Positions 36,187-43,655 of a stretch of 64,000 bases of DNA are shown piece after piece. Location: contig BOKP01000001.1 of NCBI GenBank assembly GCA_016861045.1, forward strand, positions 62,001 through 126,000, written 5' to 3'. Numbering within the stretch: the stretch's first letter is position 1; every line of letters starts with the position of its first letter. Below the pieces are notes generated by a model. That model did no database searches. It was not told where the DNA came from and was given only the letters and a program-made list of their open reading frames with translations. A program made the translations under genes and the position numbers. Source of the stretch: Actinomycetes bacterium (GTDB lineage: Bacteria > Actinomycetota > Thermoleophilia > Solirubrobacterales > 70-9).

Positions 36187-36192
36187 TAACGT
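36187..36192 (+). promoter_or_regulatory. -10 box of the phosphoribosyltransferase-esterase operon
   Basis: TAACGT, followed about 15 nt later by AAGGAGG (36207-36213). The -35 position is not recognisable. Confidence 0.4.
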
Positions 36193-36218
36193 GAGGGTGC
36201 ATTCACAAGGAGGAAGCG

Positions 36219-36266
36219 ATGAAGTCCTCGCCGGCCCGCGCACCGATTCGTCCGCGATGCCGCTGA
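36219..36266 (+). CDS. Possible 15-codon leader ORF with the operon's only strong SD
   Basis: ATG 36219 has the best SD in the area (AAGGAGG, 5 nt spacing) and opens a 15-codon frame (MKSSPARAPIRPRCR) ending TGA at 36264-36266. That stop overlaps the first codons of the phosphoribosyltransferase gene, whose ATG at 36257 is in another frame and has no SD of its own. This looks like a translation-coupling leader. A frameshift at the gene's 5' end, or a sequencing error, is the alternative. Confidence 0.4.
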   Translation: MKSSPARAPIRPRCR

Positions 36267-37603
36267 CCCGCCGCAGCACCTTCCGGGACCGCCGCGAGGC
36301 GGGGCGGATGCTCGCCGCCCGGCTCTCGGAGATGGATCTCGACGCCCCGGTCGTGATCGCGCTTCCGCGGGGAGGGGTCCCGGTCGGATTCGAGGTGGCG
36401 CGGGCGCTGGGCGCCCCGCTCGACGTCGGCCTCGTCCGCAAGATCGGCCATCCGAGCCAACCCGAGCTCGGCATCGGCGCGATCGGCGAGGACGGATCGG
36501 TGGTGGTCGACCGGCGGGCGCTCGAGGCGTTCGCGATCGACGACGAGCAGGTCGAGCTGATCGCCGCGCGCGAGGCCGAGGAGCTCGATCGCCGTCGCCG
36601 CCTCTACCGCGGCGACGCGCCGCCGGCGCCGGTCCGCGACCGGACCGTCGTCGTCGTCGATGACGGGATCGCCACCGGCGTCACCGCCGCCGCCGCGGCC
36701 CGGGTCCTGAAGGCGCAGGGGGCCGCGCGGGTGATCCTCGCCGTCCCGGTCTGCCCGGCCGGGACCCCGGAGCGGATCGACGGCGGGATCGACGAGGTCG
36801 TGACGCTCGCGGCCCCGGAGCGGTTCGGAAGCGTCGGCGCCTGGTACGACGACTTCTCCCAGACCTCGGACCGGGAGGTGGTCGAGCTGCTCGCGGCGGC
36901 GCGCCCCGACGTTCCCGCCGCCGGGCCCGGCGTGCCGGGCGAGGTGACGATCCCGACCGCCGACGGGGTCGAGCTCGGGGGGTTCCTGCGGTTGCCGCCG
37001 GACCCGACCGGCCTCGTCGTCTTCGTCCACGGCAGCGGCTCGAGCCGCCACAGCCCGCGCAACGCGTCGGTCGCCCGCTACCTCGAGGGTCGTGGCCTGG
37101 CGACGCTGCTCTTCGACCTGCTGACGCCGGCCGAGGCTGCCGACCGACGGCTCGTCTTCGACATCGAGCTGCTCTCGCAGCGGCTCGGGGACGCGATCCG
37201 CTGGTCCCGCGGGCAGGGCGCGGCGGCCGGCCTGCCGCTCGCCTGCTTCGGCGCCTCCACGGGCGCCGCCGCGGCGCTCACCGCCGCGGCCGAGCCGGGC
37301 GCCGGGATCGCCGCCGTCGTCTCCCGCGGCGGCCGCCCCGATCTCGCCGGGGCGACGCTGCGACGCGTCACCGTCCCCGTCCTGCTGATCGTCGGCGGCG
37401 CCGACACCGAGGTCCTGGCGCTGAACCGGGCCGCCGCGACGGAGCTCGCCGGCCCCTGCCGGCTCGCGGTCGTCCCCGGAGCGGGGCACCTGTTCGAGGA
37501 GCCCGGGACGCTGGCGCAGGCGGCCCGGCTCGCCGCCGACTTCCTCGAGGTCGAGCTCGCGGCCGCCGAGCCGGGCGCCCGCCCCGCCGGCGGCGCGCGA
37601 TGA
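36257..37603 (+). CDS. Phosphoribosyltransferase fused to alpha/beta (dienelactone-type) hydrolase
   Basis: 448-aa two-domain protein. Residues 1-215 are a type I phosphoribosyltransferase-like domain: ALPRGGVPVGFEVA, the VRKIGHP segment and the PRPP loop VVVVDDGIATGVT (131-143). Residues 230-445 are an alpha/beta hydrolase with VFVHGSGSSRHSPRN, nucleophile Ser in CFGASTGAAAAL, and His in PGAGHLFEEPG. This fusion is common in actinomycetes next to erythromycin esterase genes, as here (ATGA overlap). No reaction is proven. Stress or antibiotic-tolerance operons of this composition are known, but the role is inference. Confidence 0.85.
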   Translation: MPLTRRSTFRDRREAGRMLAARLSEMDLDAPVVIALPRGGVPVGFEVARALGAPLDVGLVRKIGHPSQPELGIGAIGEDGSVVVDRRALEAFAIDDEQVELIAAREAEELDRRRRLYRGDAPPAPVRDRTVVVVDDGIATGVTAAAAARVLKAQGAARVILAVPVCPAGTPERIDGGIDEVVTLAAPERFGSVGAWYDDFSQTSDREVVELLAAARPDVPAAGPGVPGEVTIPTADGVELGGFLRLPPDPTGLVVFVHGSGSSRHSPRNASVARYLEGRGLATLLFDLLTPAEAADRRLVFDIELLSQRLGDAIRWSRGQGAAAGLPLACFGASTGAAAALTAAAEPGAGIAAVVSRGGRPDLAGATLRRVTVPVLLIVGGADTEVLALNRAAATELAGPCRLAVVPGAGHLFEEPGTLAQAARLAADFLEVELAAAEPGARPAGGAR

Positions 37604-38946
37604 GAGCCGGCACCGCACCCCGCGCCGCGGCCGGTGCCGTCGCGAAGGCGATCGCGGGCGCCGCGCATCCCGTGACCGGCGCTCCCGGCGACTACGACGA
37701 GCTGATCGAGTCGGTCGGCGACGGGCGGGTCGTCCTGATCGGCGAGGCCACCCACGGGACCCACGAGTTCTATCGCCACCGCGCGGTGATCACAAAGCGC
37801 CTGATCGAGGAGAAGGGGTTCAACGCCGTCGCCGTCGAGGCCGACTGGCCGGACGCCTACCGCGTCAACCGCTTCGTCCACGGGGCCGACGACGACCCCG
37901 ACGCCGAGCGCGCCCTCGCCGGCTTCGAGCGCTTCCCGACCTGGATGTGGCGGAACGCCGACGTCCTCGACTTCGTCGGCTGGCTGCGGGCCCACAACGA
38001 GCGCGCCGAGGGCCCGGCGGGCTTCTACGGGCTCGACCTGTACAGCCTCTATCGCTCGGTCGCGGCGGTCATCGAGTACCTCGACCGCATCGACCCGGCG
38101 GCCGCCGCCCGGGCGCGTGCGCGCTACGACTGCCTCGAGCGCTTCGAGGAGAGCCAGGCCTACGGGTACGCGGCGGCGCGCGGGCTGACCCCTTCCTGCC
38201 AGGAAGGGGTGCTGCGCCAGCTCGTCGACCTGCAGCGGACCGGTGAGGCCTACCTGCGGCGCGACGGCATCGCCGCCGAGGACGAGCAGTTCTACGCCGA
38301 GGAGAACGCCCGGCTCGTCGTCGCCGCCGAGCGCTATTACCGGTCGATGTTCACCGGCCCGGTCTCATCGTGGAGCCTCCGCGACAGCCACATGGCGGGG
38401 ACGCTGGAGCGGCTGATCGCCCACCTCGAGGGGCGCGGCCCGGCCCGCGTCGTCGTCTGGGCCCACAACTCCCACGTCGGCGATGCCCGGCGGACGTCGA
38501 TGGGGCCGCGCGGTGAGCACAACATCGGCCAGCTCGCCCGCGAGCGATTCGGGCTCGGCGCCATCCTGATCGGGTTCACGACCTGCACCGGCACCGTCAG
38601 CGCCGCCTCCGACTGGGGCGCCCCGGTGGAGCGCAAGCGGGTCCGGCCGCCGCGAGCCGACAGCGTCGAGGCGGTCCTCGGCGCGGTCGAGCTCGACGCG
38701 TTCTGGCTGCGCCTGCGCGACGACGGGCGTGCCGCCGCCGAGCTCTTCCATCCGCGGCTCGAGCGTGCGATCGGGGTCATCTACCGGCCCGAGAACGAGC
38801 TCGCCAGCCACTACTTCGAGACCCACCTCTCAGAGCAGTTCGATTACGTCATCCACTTCGACCAGACCCGGGCGGTGGAGCCGCTCGAGCGGACGGCGGA
38901 GTGGCAGCGCGGCGAGCCGCCCGAGACCTACCCGACCGCGCTCTGA
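37600..38946 (+). CDS. Erythromycin esterase family protein
   Basis: 448-aa EreA/EreB-superfamily protein, full length. The catalytic groove residues are present: LIGEATHGTHEFY with Glu and His, VAVEADWPDAYRVNRF, GFYGLDLYSLYRS, and VVWAHNSHVGDAR with the active-site histidine used to activate water in Ere enzymes. Many chromosomal members do not act on macrolides, and the coupling to a phosphoribosyltransferase-hydrolase suggests another ester or lactone. The start overlaps the previous stop by 4 bp. It should not be read as proof of macrolide resistance. Confidence 0.85.
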   Translation: MRAGTAPRAAAGAVAKAIAGAAHPVTGAPGDYDELIESVGDGRVVLIGEATHGTHEFYRHRAVITKRLIEEKGFNAVAVEADWPDAYRVNRFVHGADDDPDAERALAGFERFPTWMWRNADVLDFVGWLRAHNERAEGPAGFYGLDLYSLYRSVAAVIEYLDRIDPAAAARARARYDCLERFEESQAYGYAAARGLTPSCQEGVLRQLVDLQRTGEAYLRRDGIAAEDEQFYAEENARLVVAAERYYRSMFTGPVSSWSLRDSHMAGTLERLIAHLEGRGPARVVVWAHNSHVGDARRTSMGPRGEHNIGQLARERFGLGAILIGFTTCTGTVSAASDWGAPVERKRVRPPRADSVEAVLGAVELDAFWLRLRDDGRAAAELFHPRLERAIGVIYRPENELASHYFETHLSEQFDYVIHFDQTRAVEPLERTAEWQRGEPPETYPTAL

Positions 38947-40350: not shown

Positions 40351-40365
40351 CGCCGCCTCGCGGCG
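40351..40365 (-). terminator. Hairpin directly after the 31-aa ORF
   Basis: CGCCGC-CTC-GCGGCG, a perfect 6-bp stem with 3-nt loop, begins 5 nt past the stop codon of the minus-strand small ORF. There is no T-tract. Confidence 0.45.
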
Positions 40366-40370
40366 TCGGG

Positions 40371-40466
40371 CTATCGGCGGCGGCGGTGCTCGGCGCGGAT
40401 CCGGACCAGCTCCGGGTCCTGGCGTACGGTTCGGGCGATGAACTGGGCGGCGGCGATGGAGAGCAT
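40371..40466 (-). CDS. Possible 31-aa small protein
   Basis: Not recognised. The ORF runs MLSIAAAQFIARTVRQDPEL and ends with an Arg cluster after EH, giving a short hydrophobic or amphipathic start and a strongly basic tail. It is supported by context rather than homology. A consensus promoter lies upstream, AAGAGG (40479-40484) is a plausible though distant SD (11 nt), and a stem-loop follows the stop. It is divergent from the CGNR regulator. It could instead be the 5' part of a small RNA. Confidence 0.45.
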   Translation of the reverse strand: MLSIAAAQFIARTVRQDPELVRIRAEHRRRR

Positions 40467-40507
40467 TCTCGGGACTGCCTCTTGTTTCGGGGAACTGACC
40501 GGCAAAG

Positions 40508-40536
40508 AGGCTACAGAGGTCATAATGACCTGTCAA
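40508..40536 (-). promoter_or_regulatory. Consensus promoter with operator palindrome in its spacer
   Basis: On the minus strand TTGACA (complement of 40531-40536) and TAGCCT (complement of 40508-40513) are separated by exactly 17 bp. This is the only full -35/-10 match with ideal spacing noted in the window. The perfect 15-bp palindrome AGGTCATAATGACCT (40517-40531) fills most of the spacer, an ideal place for a repressor. It drives towards the 31-aa ORF, away from the CGNR gene. Confidence 0.75.
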
Positions 40537-40560
40537 GTGGAATTGATGGTCACAAGCCAG

Positions 40561-40566
40561 TAGGAT
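40561..40566 (+). promoter_or_regulatory. -10 box of the CGNR regulator (leaderless arrangement)
   Basis: TAGGAT, 7 nt before ATG 40574; no SD. The palindrome at 40517-40531 lies about 30 bp upstream, where a regulator could also act on this promoter. Confidence 0.5.
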
Positions 40567-40573
40567 CCGGGCC

Positions 40574-41155
40574 ATGGACGTCCCGAGGCTCAGCCGCTGG
40601 CTCGAGAGCAAGGTCGCCCCCGATCCCCTGATCGCCGTTCAGGCGCTGGCCAATTCGCACCCGTCCGAGGACCAGGGGGAGCTCCTGCTCGACGTCGAGA
40701 CGACCCGCTACTGGCTGCTTCGCTTCGGGTTCGCGGCCGACGGCATCGAGGTCAGCGAGGACGATCGCGGGCGCCTCCTCGAGCTTCGCGGCTGCGTCCG
40801 GGCGCTGATCGACGCCAACGCGACCGGCGAGCGGGACGCGGCCGCGAGCGAGCGTCTCGCCGCCATCGTCGCCGACCACCCGGTTCCGCTCGCGGTCGAG
40901 CGGGACGGGCGGATCGGTCTCGACCTGGCCCCCGCCCCCTCGGTCGATGCGCTGATCGCGCAGCTGATCGGAGTCGTCCTGCGGGCGCAGATCGACGGCA
41001 CCTGGGAGCGGCTGAAGATCTGCGCCGCCGACACCTGCCGCTGGGCCTTCTACGACGCCTCGAAGAACCGGGGCGGCCACTGGTGCTCGATGGAGGTCTG
41101 CGGCAACCGCGAGAAGAACCGCAGCTACCGGCGCCGGCGGGCGGCCACCGCCTGA
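40574..41155 (+). CDS. ABATE/CGNR zinc-finger transcriptional regulator
   Basis: 193-aa protein with an N-terminal ABATE ligand-sensing domain (residues 1-140; LDVETTRYWLLRFG, ALIDANATGERD) and a C-terminal CGNR zinc finger: CAADTCRWAFYD, then HWCSMEVCGNREKNRSYR. The four Cys ligands, the CGNR box and the basic tail bind DNA. The family consists of one-component regulators, commonly of stress or efflux genes. The divergent promoter-operator at 40508-40536 is the obvious candidate target. Leaderless start. Confidence 0.9.
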   Translation: MDVPRLSRWLESKVAPDPLIAVQALANSHPSEDQGELLLDVETTRYWLLRFGFAADGIEVSEDDRGRLLELRGCVRALIDANATGERDAAASERLAAIVADHPVPLAVERDGRIGLDLAPAPSVDALIAQLIGVVLRAQIDGTWERLKICAADTCRWAFYDASKNRGGHWCSMEVCGNREKNRSYRRRRAATA

Positions 41156-41176: not shown

Positions 41177-41479
41177 CTACTTCGTGAAGCGCTCGGCGCA
41201 GCGCTGCATCTTCGTCACGTCCGGCTCGACGCGCTGCACGCACGCGAGCACCCGCTCGGCGTCGGTCTTGCCGACCCCGCTCAGGTTCGGCGGGTCGACG
41301 CCGGCGCCGTCGAACGCGCTGTCGATCGAGCTCTCGATGCCGCCGAAGCTGTCGAACGCGCGGTCGATGGTCTCGTTCGTCGTGTCGAGGATCGGCCGGA
41401 CGAGGAAGAAGTAGACGGCGGCGAGGATCGCGATCGTGACGATCAGACGGATCAGGCTGCGGGCGAGGGTCTCCGTCAC
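41177..41479 (-). CDS. Small single-span membrane protein of unknown function
   Basis: 100-aa protein, not recognised. Residues 8-28 form one membrane helix (LIRLIVTIAILAAVYFFLV). The rest is a polar, acidic domain with heptad-like helices (TIDRAFDSFGGIESSIDSAF) and two cysteines near the C-terminus (LACVQRVEPDVTKMQRCAERF), probably exposed and able to form a disulfide. GTG start with TAGATT 9 nt upstream. It is divergent from pafBC and converges on the CGNR gene. Confidence 0.7.
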   Translation of the reverse strand: MTETLARSLIRLIVTIAILAAVYFFLVRPILDTTNETIDRAFDSFGGIESSIDSAFDGAGVDPPNLSGVGKTDAERVLACVQRVEPDVTKMQRCAERFTK

Positions 41480-41593
41480 GGCGACGCGAATCTAGATGAT
41501 CGGCCCGTCGGACTGGGTCACGAGCGCCGCACCGGAGAGCGCAAACTGCGCAAATCCCGGGCTCGCCGCCGCGGCCGGCCCGACGGCGGCATC

Positions 41594-41599
41594 TATCCT
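41594..41599 (+). promoter_or_regulatory. -10 box of pafBC (leaderless arrangement)
   Basis: TATCCT, 7 nt before the GTG start at 41607; no SD and no consensus -35. Confidence 0.5.
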
Positions 41600-41606
41600 G
41601 CGGACC

Positions 41607-43655
41607 GTGGCCAAGGACACCGAGAAGCTGATCCGCCAGCTCTCCCTGATCTCCTTCCTGATGGCGAACCGGCGGCCGGTCTCGGCGCTCGAGATCAAGC
41701 AGGAGGTCGAGGGCTACAGCTCGATGAACGAGGACGCCTTCGCGCGGCGCTTCTACGCCGACCGCGCCGAGCTCGAGAGCCTCGGGATCGCGCTCAAGGT
41801 CGACAAGCCGAGCGAGGGCTTCCTCGAGTCGGAGCTCTACGCGCTTCCGCCCGAGAACTACTACCTCCCCGCGATCGAGTTCAGTGACGCCGAGCTCGCG
41901 GCGCTGCGGACGGCGCTCGCCCTGCTCGACGGCCGCTTCGCCTACGCCGAGCCGTTGCGCCTGGCCCTGCAGCAGGTCTCCTGGGGGCGCAAGAGCCCGC
42001 TCGGCGCCGACGCCGACGCCCCGATCGAGATGGCGATGACCGCCTCGGCCGGGGGCCGCGAGCTCTCCCAGCGCCTCGCCAAGATCGAGACCGCGATCTC
42101 GCGCCGGAAGACGATCCAGTTCAGCTACTACACGATGGAGCGCGACGCGACGATGGATCGCGAGGTGGACCCCTACCACCTGGTCTTCCGCTCCGGCCAG
42201 TTCTACCTGATCGGGCACGCGCACGAGCGCGATGCGGTTCGCGTCTTCAGGCTCTCGCGGATCCAGGGCAAGGTCTCCTACGCGAGCAAGGCCGAGCACG
42301 ACTTCAACCCGCCCGGTGACTTCGACCGGCGCGACTACGCCTCCCGCGCCGACTGGCAGATGGGCGCCACCGAGGGACGGGCGCGGATCTTCCTCCGCGA
42401 TCGGATCGACTGGCTCGTAGCCCGCGATTACGGCCAGTACGGGGACATGGAGCCCGCCGCCAACGGCGACCGCAAGCGCGGCAAGGGCTCGGTCTACGAG
42501 ACCGAGTTCTCCTCCTCCCGCCAGCTCGTCGCCTGGCTGCTCGGCTGGCGGCGCAACGCGACCGTGCTCGAGCCGCCGGAGCTCGCCGCCGAGGCGGAGG
42601 AGCGCCGCAAGCTCTTGCGGGAGCGCCACTCGCGCGACTTCGAGACCGCGAAGCCGCGCGCCCGCCGGCCCGGCTCCGACCGCGGCGGCCGCTCCAACGG
42701 CAAGGCCGAGACCGTGATCAGGCCGGAGCGCTTCGCGCGCCTCGTCACCCTCGCGGGGATGCTGATCGACTCCGCCCGCAACGACCGCCGGCTGCTCACC
42801 GCCGACGTCTGCGACGAGCTCGGGATCTCGGTCAAGGAGCTGACCAGCGACATCGACGTCCTCAACGTCGTCAACTTCGGCGGCGGCACCTACGTCCTCT
42901 ACGCCGAGGTCGCCGGCGATGAGATCGAGGTCGATCCCGAGGCCTACGGCGACAGCTTCGCCCGCCCGGCGCGGCTGTTGCCGCTCGAGGCGAAGGCGCT
43001 GGTCGCCGCGATCGACCTGTTCGGCGACCACCTCCCGCAGGTCGGACTCGACACGGCCCGCGAGAAGATCGTCGCGGCGCTCGGCCACGATCCCTCCGAG
43101 GAGGGCCTGCAGATCACGGTCGAGCGCGACGAGCCGGAGATCGTCAGCGCGGTCAACGACGCGATCGCCTCGCGCTCGGTGCTGCGGATCAACTACTACA
43201 AGGAGAACGAGGACCAGTTCACCGCCCGCGAGATCGAGCCCTACAAGCTCGCGCGCGGGGCCGACGGCTGGTACGTGGGCTGCCGCGACCGCAAGCGCGG
43301 CGCCGTCCGCCACTTCCGGCTCGACCGGACCAAGGAGGCGGAGCCGACCGGCGAGGCCTTCGAGCACGACCAGGCGGTCGCGGACCAGCTCGATGGGCAG
43401 CGATGGCTGACTGCCGGCGAGCCCGAGGACGCCCGCTTCGCCCGCGTCTGGGTCTCACCCGAGCGCGCCCGCTGGGTGCGGGAGGAGCGCACCGTCGTCG
43501 AGGAGCTGGCCGACGGCGCGCTGATCATCGAGATGCCGTTCGCCGGGACCTCGTGGCTCGTCCGCGAGGTGCTGAAGGGCGCCGGCGACATGGTCGTGCT
43601 CGAGCCCGACGACGCCCGCGAGGCGGTGCTCGCGGCCGTCACCGAGACGGCCTGA
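41607..43655 (+). CDS. pafBC: PafBC: fused double HTH-WYL-WCX transcriptional activator
   Basis: 682-aa fusion of PafB-like and PafC-like halves. Each has a winged-helix HTH (DTEKLIRQLSLISFLMANRR; later ARLVTLAGMLIDSARNDRRL), a WYL domain (KTIQFSYYTMERDA; SVLRINYYKENEDQF) and a WCX extension. A basic linker lies near residues 340-375. In actinomycetes PafBC activates the LexA-independent DNA-damage response, and naturally fused versions are known. GTG 41607 is chosen over upstream in-frame starts because the protein begins with the conserved DTEKLIRQL and its own -10. No proteasome or pup genes are adjacent. Confidence 0.88.
   Translation: MAKDTEKLIRQLSLISFLMANRRPVSALEIKQEVEGYSSMNEDAFARRFYADRAELESLGIALKVDKPSEGFLESELYALPPENYYLPAIEFSDAELAALRTALALLDGRFAYAEPLRLALQQVSWGRKSPLGADADAPIEMAMTASAGGRELSQRLAKIETAISRRKTIQFSYYTMERDATMDREVDPYHLVFRSGQFYLIGHAHERDAVRVFRLSRIQGKVSYASKAEHDFNPPGDFDRRDYASRADWQMGATEGRARIFLRDRIDWLVARDYGQYGDMEPAANGDRKRGKGSVYETEFSSSRQLVAWLLGWRRNATVLEPPELAAEAEERRKLLRERHSRDFETAKPRARRPGSDRGGRSNGKAETVIRPERFARLVTLAGMLIDSARNDRRLLTADVCDELGISVKELTSDIDVLNVVNFGGGTYVLYAEVAGDEIEVDPEAYGDSFARPARLLPLEAKALVAAIDLFGDHLPQVGLDTAREKIVAALGHDPSEEGLQITVERDEPEIVSAVNDAIASRSVLRINYYKENEDQFTAREIEPYKLARGADGWYVGCRDRKRGAVRHFRLDRTKEAEPTGEAFEHDQAVADQLDGQRWLTAGEPEDARFARVWVSPERARWVREERTVVEELADGALIIEMPFAGTSWLVREVLKGAGDMVVLEPDDAREAVLAAVTETA

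What the first reader, a model, noticed from the sequence alone, without database searches (positions are those of the whole stretch)
40351..40573. Compact, apparently regulated transcription unit encoding a 31-aa basic peptide or sRNA opposite the CGNR regulator
Within 190 bp on the minus strand there is a consensus promoter (TTGACA, 17 bp, TAGCCT), a perfect 15-bp palindrome filling its spacer, a possible SD, a 31-codon ORF with a hydrophobic start and Arg-rich end, and a stem-loop 5 nt after the stop. The divergent gene is a one-component CGNR regulator. The arrangement suggests that the regulator controls a tiny effector (membrane peptide, toxin or sRNA) through the palindrome. I know of no described system of this form.
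Basis: partly seen in the sequence, partly recalled or inferred. Interest (0 to 1): 0.62.

Follow-up and report, generated by a model that had tools for sequence, protein, structure and literature searches.

The report
CGNR repressor operator and its mini-gene
A little-studied bacterial regulator (CGNR family) faces a 31-amino-acid gene across a four-part DNA switch that recurs, with matched changes in protein and DNA, in several bacterial phyla, which gives a testable rule for how this regulator family recognises DNA.

Summary
The sequence features are real and conserved, so the finding is not an artefact. The 15-bp palindrome is only the junction of a larger operator: two tandem units, each TGACC-N17-GGTCA (40496-40522 and 40526-40552). 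They lie between the ABATE/CGNR gene (+, 40574-41155) and a divergent 31-aa gene (-, 40371-40466). A two-unit operator scoring >=18/20 is found upstream of 63 of 102 CGNR homologues (0.4 expected from shuffles), across Actinomycetota, Chloroflexota, Dormibacterota, Deinococcota and others. An ORF lies opposite in all 83 loci examined. The half-sites change together (GGTCA/GGTTA/GGTGA/GGTAA/GGTGT) and follow residues 178 and 182 of the CGNR recognition helix. That is good, though phylogenetically limited, evidence that CGNR itself binds here. The minus-strand promoter is conserved (TTGAC exact in 78 of 96). The peptide is conserved in frame only within the genus (dN/dS about 0.3 between the two relatives); other genera have unrelated small basic proteins in the same slot. 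The hairpin, membrane-peptide and sRNA readings are not supported. Best reading: an autorepressing CGNR regulator that co-represses a small basic protein gene; the protein's function and the inducer are unknown. I found no CGNR operator described in the papers searched.

The parts
40496..40522 (.). operator unit 1: TGACC-N17-GGTCA
   Evidence: only GT-form two-unit operator in the window
40526..40552 (.). operator unit 2: TGACC-N17-GGTCA
40508..40536 (-). promoter of the small gene: TTGACA-N17-TAGCCT, its spacer filled by the unit junction
   Evidence: TTGAC exact at this place in 78 of 96 operator loci; -35 plus -10 in 67
40371..40466 (-). 31-aa basic peptide gene (with stop)
   Evidence: syntenic 32-aa homologues in both congeners with strong SD; in-frame purifying pattern between the congeners
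40478..40483 (-). weak Shine-Dalgarno AAGAGG
40538..40566 (+). putative CGNR promoter TGGAAT-N17-TAGGAT (congener: TTGATT-N17-TAGGAT); implies a leaderless or nearly leaderless mRNA
   Evidence: TAnnnT 4-9 nt before the start in 52 of 70, SD-like in 11 of 70
40574..41155 (+). ABATE + CGNR zinc-finger regulator; specificity residues N178 and N182 in helix 173-192

Best explanation
This is a divergent autoregulatory switch. The CGNR protein, presumably a dimer as in the solved relative, binds two tandem operator units (half-sites 22 bp apart, on one face of the helix). The half-sites sit inside both promoters: the junction of the units fills the -35/-10 spacer of the minus promoter, and the right half-site of unit 2 lies in the spacer of the CGNR promoter. 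Occupancy should therefore shut off both the regulator gene and the gene for a small basic 31-aa protein. An unknown ligand or stress signal sensed by the ABATE domain would release the operator and give a burst of the small protein and fresh regulator. Shown by comparison: operator architecture, its position between the two genes, conserved promoter elements, in-frame conservation of the peptide in the genus, and covariation of half-site base 4 with residues 178/182. Inferred: binding by CGNR, repression rather than activation, ligand sensing. For the peptide my most likely guess (about 0.3) is a soluble basic accessory of the same response that binds nucleic acid, ribosome or another protein, not a membrane-spanning toxin.
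For: Operator score >=18/20 in 63 of 102 homologue upstream regions, 0.4 expected; inverted-repeat spacing peak at 17; dedicated single site in its genome. Half-site code: N182 gives GGTCA in 172 of 178 half-sites, M gives GGTAA in 19 of 20, A/V/G/Q give GGTTA/GGTGA/GGTGT, T gives GGTGT; loci fetched later agree, M with GGTAA in several further lineages; M arises three times on the tree with GGTAA each time; 182 and 178 are the top two columns within the non-N set, and 182 is first overall, both in helix 173-192 of a pLDDT 93 model. One genome, G004, has two paralogues with different residue and different operator (L004 N/GGTCA, L025 A/GGTTA). ORF opposite in 83 of 83. Peptide: L002/L003 dN 0.19, dS 0.59, differences by codon position 5, 5, 12, AAGGAG SD. 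Minus promoter conserved.
Against: No transcript, binding or translation data. Independent-pair sign tests for the code cannot reach significance because only 2-3 independent switches exist. The window's own peptide has diverged without clear purifying selection against L002 (dN 0.42, dS 0.29) and has a weak SD. Many CGNR homologues lack this operator (67 of 150 below threshold). Two N-type loci score as GGTTA: L046, whose half-sites are mixed, and L241, a weak, mixed match.
Confidence: 0.72

Rival explanations
1. CGNR binds the operator but works mainly as an activator, or switches between repressor and activator, with half-sites in the spacers remodelling the promoters as MerR-type regulators do.
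For: Minus-promoter spacing is often 17-19 nt with the half-site junction inside the spacer; no experiment says repression.
Against: The -35 and -10 hexamers are near consensus in many loci and lie within the units, which favours occlusion; the regulator's own promoter is covered as well.
Confidence: 0.18
2. The small protein is not the effector but a feedback partner of CGNR (anti-repressor or co-repressor binding the ABATE domain).
For: Always opposite its own CGNR gene, usually alone, no other conserved partner gene.
Against: The slot is filled by unrelated protein types in other lineages (GNAT-like halves, ~160-aa protein, alpha/beta hydrolase, MFS transporter) while CGNR stays the same, which fits regulated targets better than a binding partner.
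Confidence: 0.17
3. The minus transcript is a regulatory RNA and the ORF is incidental.
For: Short unit, GC-rich 3' end.
Against: In-frame conservation, codon-position pattern and strong SD in congeners; sequence downstream of the stop is not conserved by eye; hairpin z = -0.34, no terminator.
Confidence: 0.06
4. Another regulator binds these half-sites and CGNR is merely a neighbour.
For: GGTCA/TGACC is a common core for many regulators (own knowledge).
Against: The operator follows CGNR across phyla and its letters follow CGNR helix residues 178/182.
Confidence: 0.04
5. In this genome the peptide gene is decaying: operator and CGNR autoregulation remain, the 31-aa product is no longer important.
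For: Weak SD, dN >= dS against L002, no other homologue within the genome.
Against: ORF still intact, promoter hexamers and all four half-sites perfect.
Confidence: 0.15

Closest known systems
ABATE/CGNR regulators (Pfam PF07336 + PF11706; Jann_2411, PDB 3H0N)
   Same: Both domains, the zinc cysteines and the fold; proposed there to be a ligand-sensing DNA-binding dimer (PMC2954205).
   Different: No operator, target or recognition rule is given there; here a two-unit operator, a divergent target and residue-base covariation are seen.
SgrR - SgrS/SgrT of enteric bacteria (own knowledge)
   Same: A one-component regulator gene divergent from a very short unit encoding a small peptide.
   Different: SgrR is an unrelated solute-binding-like regulator; SgrS is chiefly a base-pairing RNA; here no RNA function is indicated and the regulator is a zinc-finger protein.
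Divergent autorepressors of the TetR/QacR kind (own knowledge)
   Same: Divergent regulator and target with tandem operator dimers over both promoters.
   Different: Different DNA-binding fold; half-sites 22 bp apart in each unit; target is often a 30-85-aa basic protein rather than an efflux pump.

Membership tests
ABATE/CGNR regulator family | Pfam ABATE and zf-CGNR matches above gathering cut-off | tested here: met
   zf-CGNR 64.3 bits (cut-off 24), ABATE 38.0 (24.4)
ABATE/CGNR regulator family | ABATE fold as in 3H0N | tested here: met
   Foldseek E 1.3e-7, the only significant hit, TM about 0.57, so a loose superposition; sequence profile E 6e-11
ABATE/CGNR regulator family | treble-clef zinc cysteines | tested here: met
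   C150, C155, C171, C176 invariant in 47 sequences
ABATE/CGNR regulator family | sequence-specific DNA binding | tested here: inconclusive
   inferred from operator conservation and residue-base covariation; no binding assay possible
SgrR-SgrS/SgrT type | SgrR-family regulator | tested here: not met
   only ABATE and CGNR domains found
SgrR-SgrS/SgrT type | transcript acts as base-pairing RNA | not tested
   no RNA structure signal at the 3' end
Toxin-antitoxin module with small membrane toxin | hydrophobic membrane-spanning peptide | tested here: not met
   highest 15-residue mean hydropathy 0.99 in the window peptide, below zero in congeners
Toxin-antitoxin module with small membrane toxin | toxicity relieved by a cognate partner | not testable with these tools
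   needs expression assay

The most novel reading that the evidence does not exclude
The CGNR zinc finger reads DNA by a simple code: two residues one helical turn apart (the N of CGNR and the residue after the conserved lysine) set base 4 of a GGTxx half-site in a four-half-site operator. The family uses this to keep paralogous, insulated autoregulatory switches, each driving an interchangeable divergent gene that is often a 30-85-aa basic protein of a class not yet described.
Probability: 0.6. Interest if true: 0.72.

Novelty: new variant of a known kind. Interest (0 to 1): 0.58.

Why it matters
CGNR regulators are common in soil and environmental bacteria (100 of 296 genomes sampled from the window's phylum had a match), and the only dedicated paper I found is a crystal structure without operator or target. 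The locus gives a cross-phylum operator, a divergent target slot and a residue-base rule that can be tested with one protein and a few oligonucleotides. It also points to many short, unannotated genes that gene finders are likely to miss.

Tried and rejected
Terminator hairpin after the stop: no better than shuffles. Membrane-spanning or amphipathic peptide: no consistent signal in 18 small partners. Pfam and NCBIfam for the small proteins: no hits above cut-off. A start at the ATG inside the palindrome (50 aa): not matched in congeners. Regulon beyond the locus: no second junction motif in the genome. Unrestricted two-unit scoring over long GC-rich sequence: unspecific (40 hits in the window); only the form with GT core is specific. 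Orphan peptide copies without CGNR: only weak hits in the family, not pursued. Literature for CGNR, ABATE, DUF1470: only the 3H0N structure paper deals with the family.

Full report
Observation. Reading the sequence confirms the promoter-like TTGACA-N17-TAGCCT on the minus strand, the perfect 15-bp palindrome in its spacer, and a 31-codon ORF (40466-40371). Opposite lies a gene that Pfam identifies as ABATE + CGNR zinc finger. The palindrome is the only match with up to two mismatches in the window against 0.04 expected. The stem-loop after the stop is ordinary for this GC content (z -0.34) and no terminator is found.

The palindrome is part of something larger. The closest homologues of the CGNR gene carry, at the same place, two tandem inverted-repeat units TGACC-N17-GGTCA, 1-5 bp apart, usually 3 or 4. 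The palindrome is where the units touch. Perfect 6-mer inverted repeats upstream of CGNR genes peak at spacer 17, with same-centre peaks at 15, 19 and 21. Scoring the agreement of four half-sites, 63 of 102 unique upstream regions reach 18 of 20 against 0.4 expected from dinucleotide shuffles. Operator loci include Mycobacteriaceae, Solirubrobacterales, Rubrobacter, Jiangella, Chloroflexota, Dormibacterota, Deinococcota, Vulcanimicrobiota (weaker match) and GN15. In the window the form with a GT core occurs once, at 40496; in the whole genome the junction motif occurs once. The switch therefore looks dedicated to this locus.

Who binds it. Across loci, all four half-sites change letters together: GGTCA, GGTTA, GGTGA, GGTAA, GGTGT. 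The letter at base 4 follows residue 182 of the CGNR protein, the residue after the invariant lysine of CGNRxK: N goes with C in 172 of 178 half-sites, M with A in 19 of 20, A/V/G/Q with T or G, T with G. Loci fetched afterwards agree, including M with GGTAA in lineages far from Rubrobacter. In a merged set, residue 182 has the highest mutual information of all columns; within the non-N set residues 178 (the N of CGNR) and 182 are the top two. They are four residues apart in the C-terminal helix 173-192 of a confident model, as expected for a recognition helix. The only solved relative is 3H0N (PMC2954205), where DNA binding by this finger was proposed but no site was given. Limits: on trees built without residue 182 and what follows it, the N class is largely one clade and M arises three times. 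The informative independent pairs agree, but there are too few for significance. Genome G004 holds two paralogues of different class, each with the matching operator.

Promoters. On the minus strand TTGAC is exact at a fixed place within unit 2 in 78 of 96 operator loci, and a TA-starting -10, mostly at 16-18 bp spacing, accompanies a good -35 in 67. The CGNR gene itself has TAnnnT 4-9 nt before its start in 52 of 70 and an SD-like motif in only 11 of 70, so its mRNA is probably leaderless. Half-sites lie in the spacers of both promoters, which I read as autorepression plus repression of the divergent gene. Activation is not excluded.

The small gene. Both congeners have a 32-aa homologue in the same place with a strong AAGGAG site: MLAIAQYFARENRIDPERVSRRAAARRRAQDR and MLAIAQYFARDNRIDPGRLSDRVAARKRSPER. 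Between them dN is 0.19 and dS 0.59, with codon-position differences 5, 5, 12; another pair at the same slot (L007/L046, MFPF...SVLDEEYEWVFGRK) gives 0.23 and 0.86. The window copy is more diverged (dN 0.42, dS 0.29 against L002) and its SD is weaker, so it may be under less constraint. A family-wide search finds close homologues only in the genus. Other genera have other small basic proteins in the slot; over all 83 operator loci an ORF lies opposite, of about six kinds. The small ones lack any membrane-spanning segment and show no consistent amphipathicity, and those scanned have no Pfam or NCBIfam match above cut-off. That speaks against a small membrane toxin, without excluding other activities.

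Verdict. The operator is larger than the palindrome, and the best evidence is the match between protein helix and half-site. Function of the 31-aa protein and the inducing signal remain unknown. Literature searches in the open library found no described CGNR operator; subscription papers could not be searched.

Noticed in passing
window 41496-43655 (+): A 719-aa protein with two WYL and two WCX stretches and a weak HTH_PafC match, like PafB and PafC (DNA-damage regulators) fused into one chain.
   Followed up: no
window 41177-41479 (-): A 100-aa protein with an N-terminal hydrophobic segment, convergent with the CGNR gene; its homologue is also convergent with CGNR in the congener L003.
   Followed up: partly
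window 36191-38946 (+): Phosphoribosyltransferase-hydrolase fusion overlapping an erythromycin-esterase-like gene.
   Followed up: no
L006 (L047), divergent side: Downstream of the small gene a second 66-aa gene (MVNLKRLTDQAKKVADKRGG...), which by eye resembles CsbD or Rv0909-like stress proteins.
   Followed up: no
L010, L101, L108, L153, L160, L182 and others: In other Solirubrobacterales the slot opposite CGNR holds a protein resembling (by eye) half a GNAT fold, often preceded by an MHPxL...R-rich leader like the small proteins.
   Followed up: partly
L052-L120 (Mycobacteriaceae), L152, L143: A ~160-aa protein without Pfam match above cut-off (one member scanned) fills the slot opposite CGNR in mycobacteria, with the same operator.
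   Followed up: partly
window 40561-40574 and operator loci: CGNR genes of this group look leaderless: -10 box 4-9 nt before the start, rarely an SD.
   Followed up: partly
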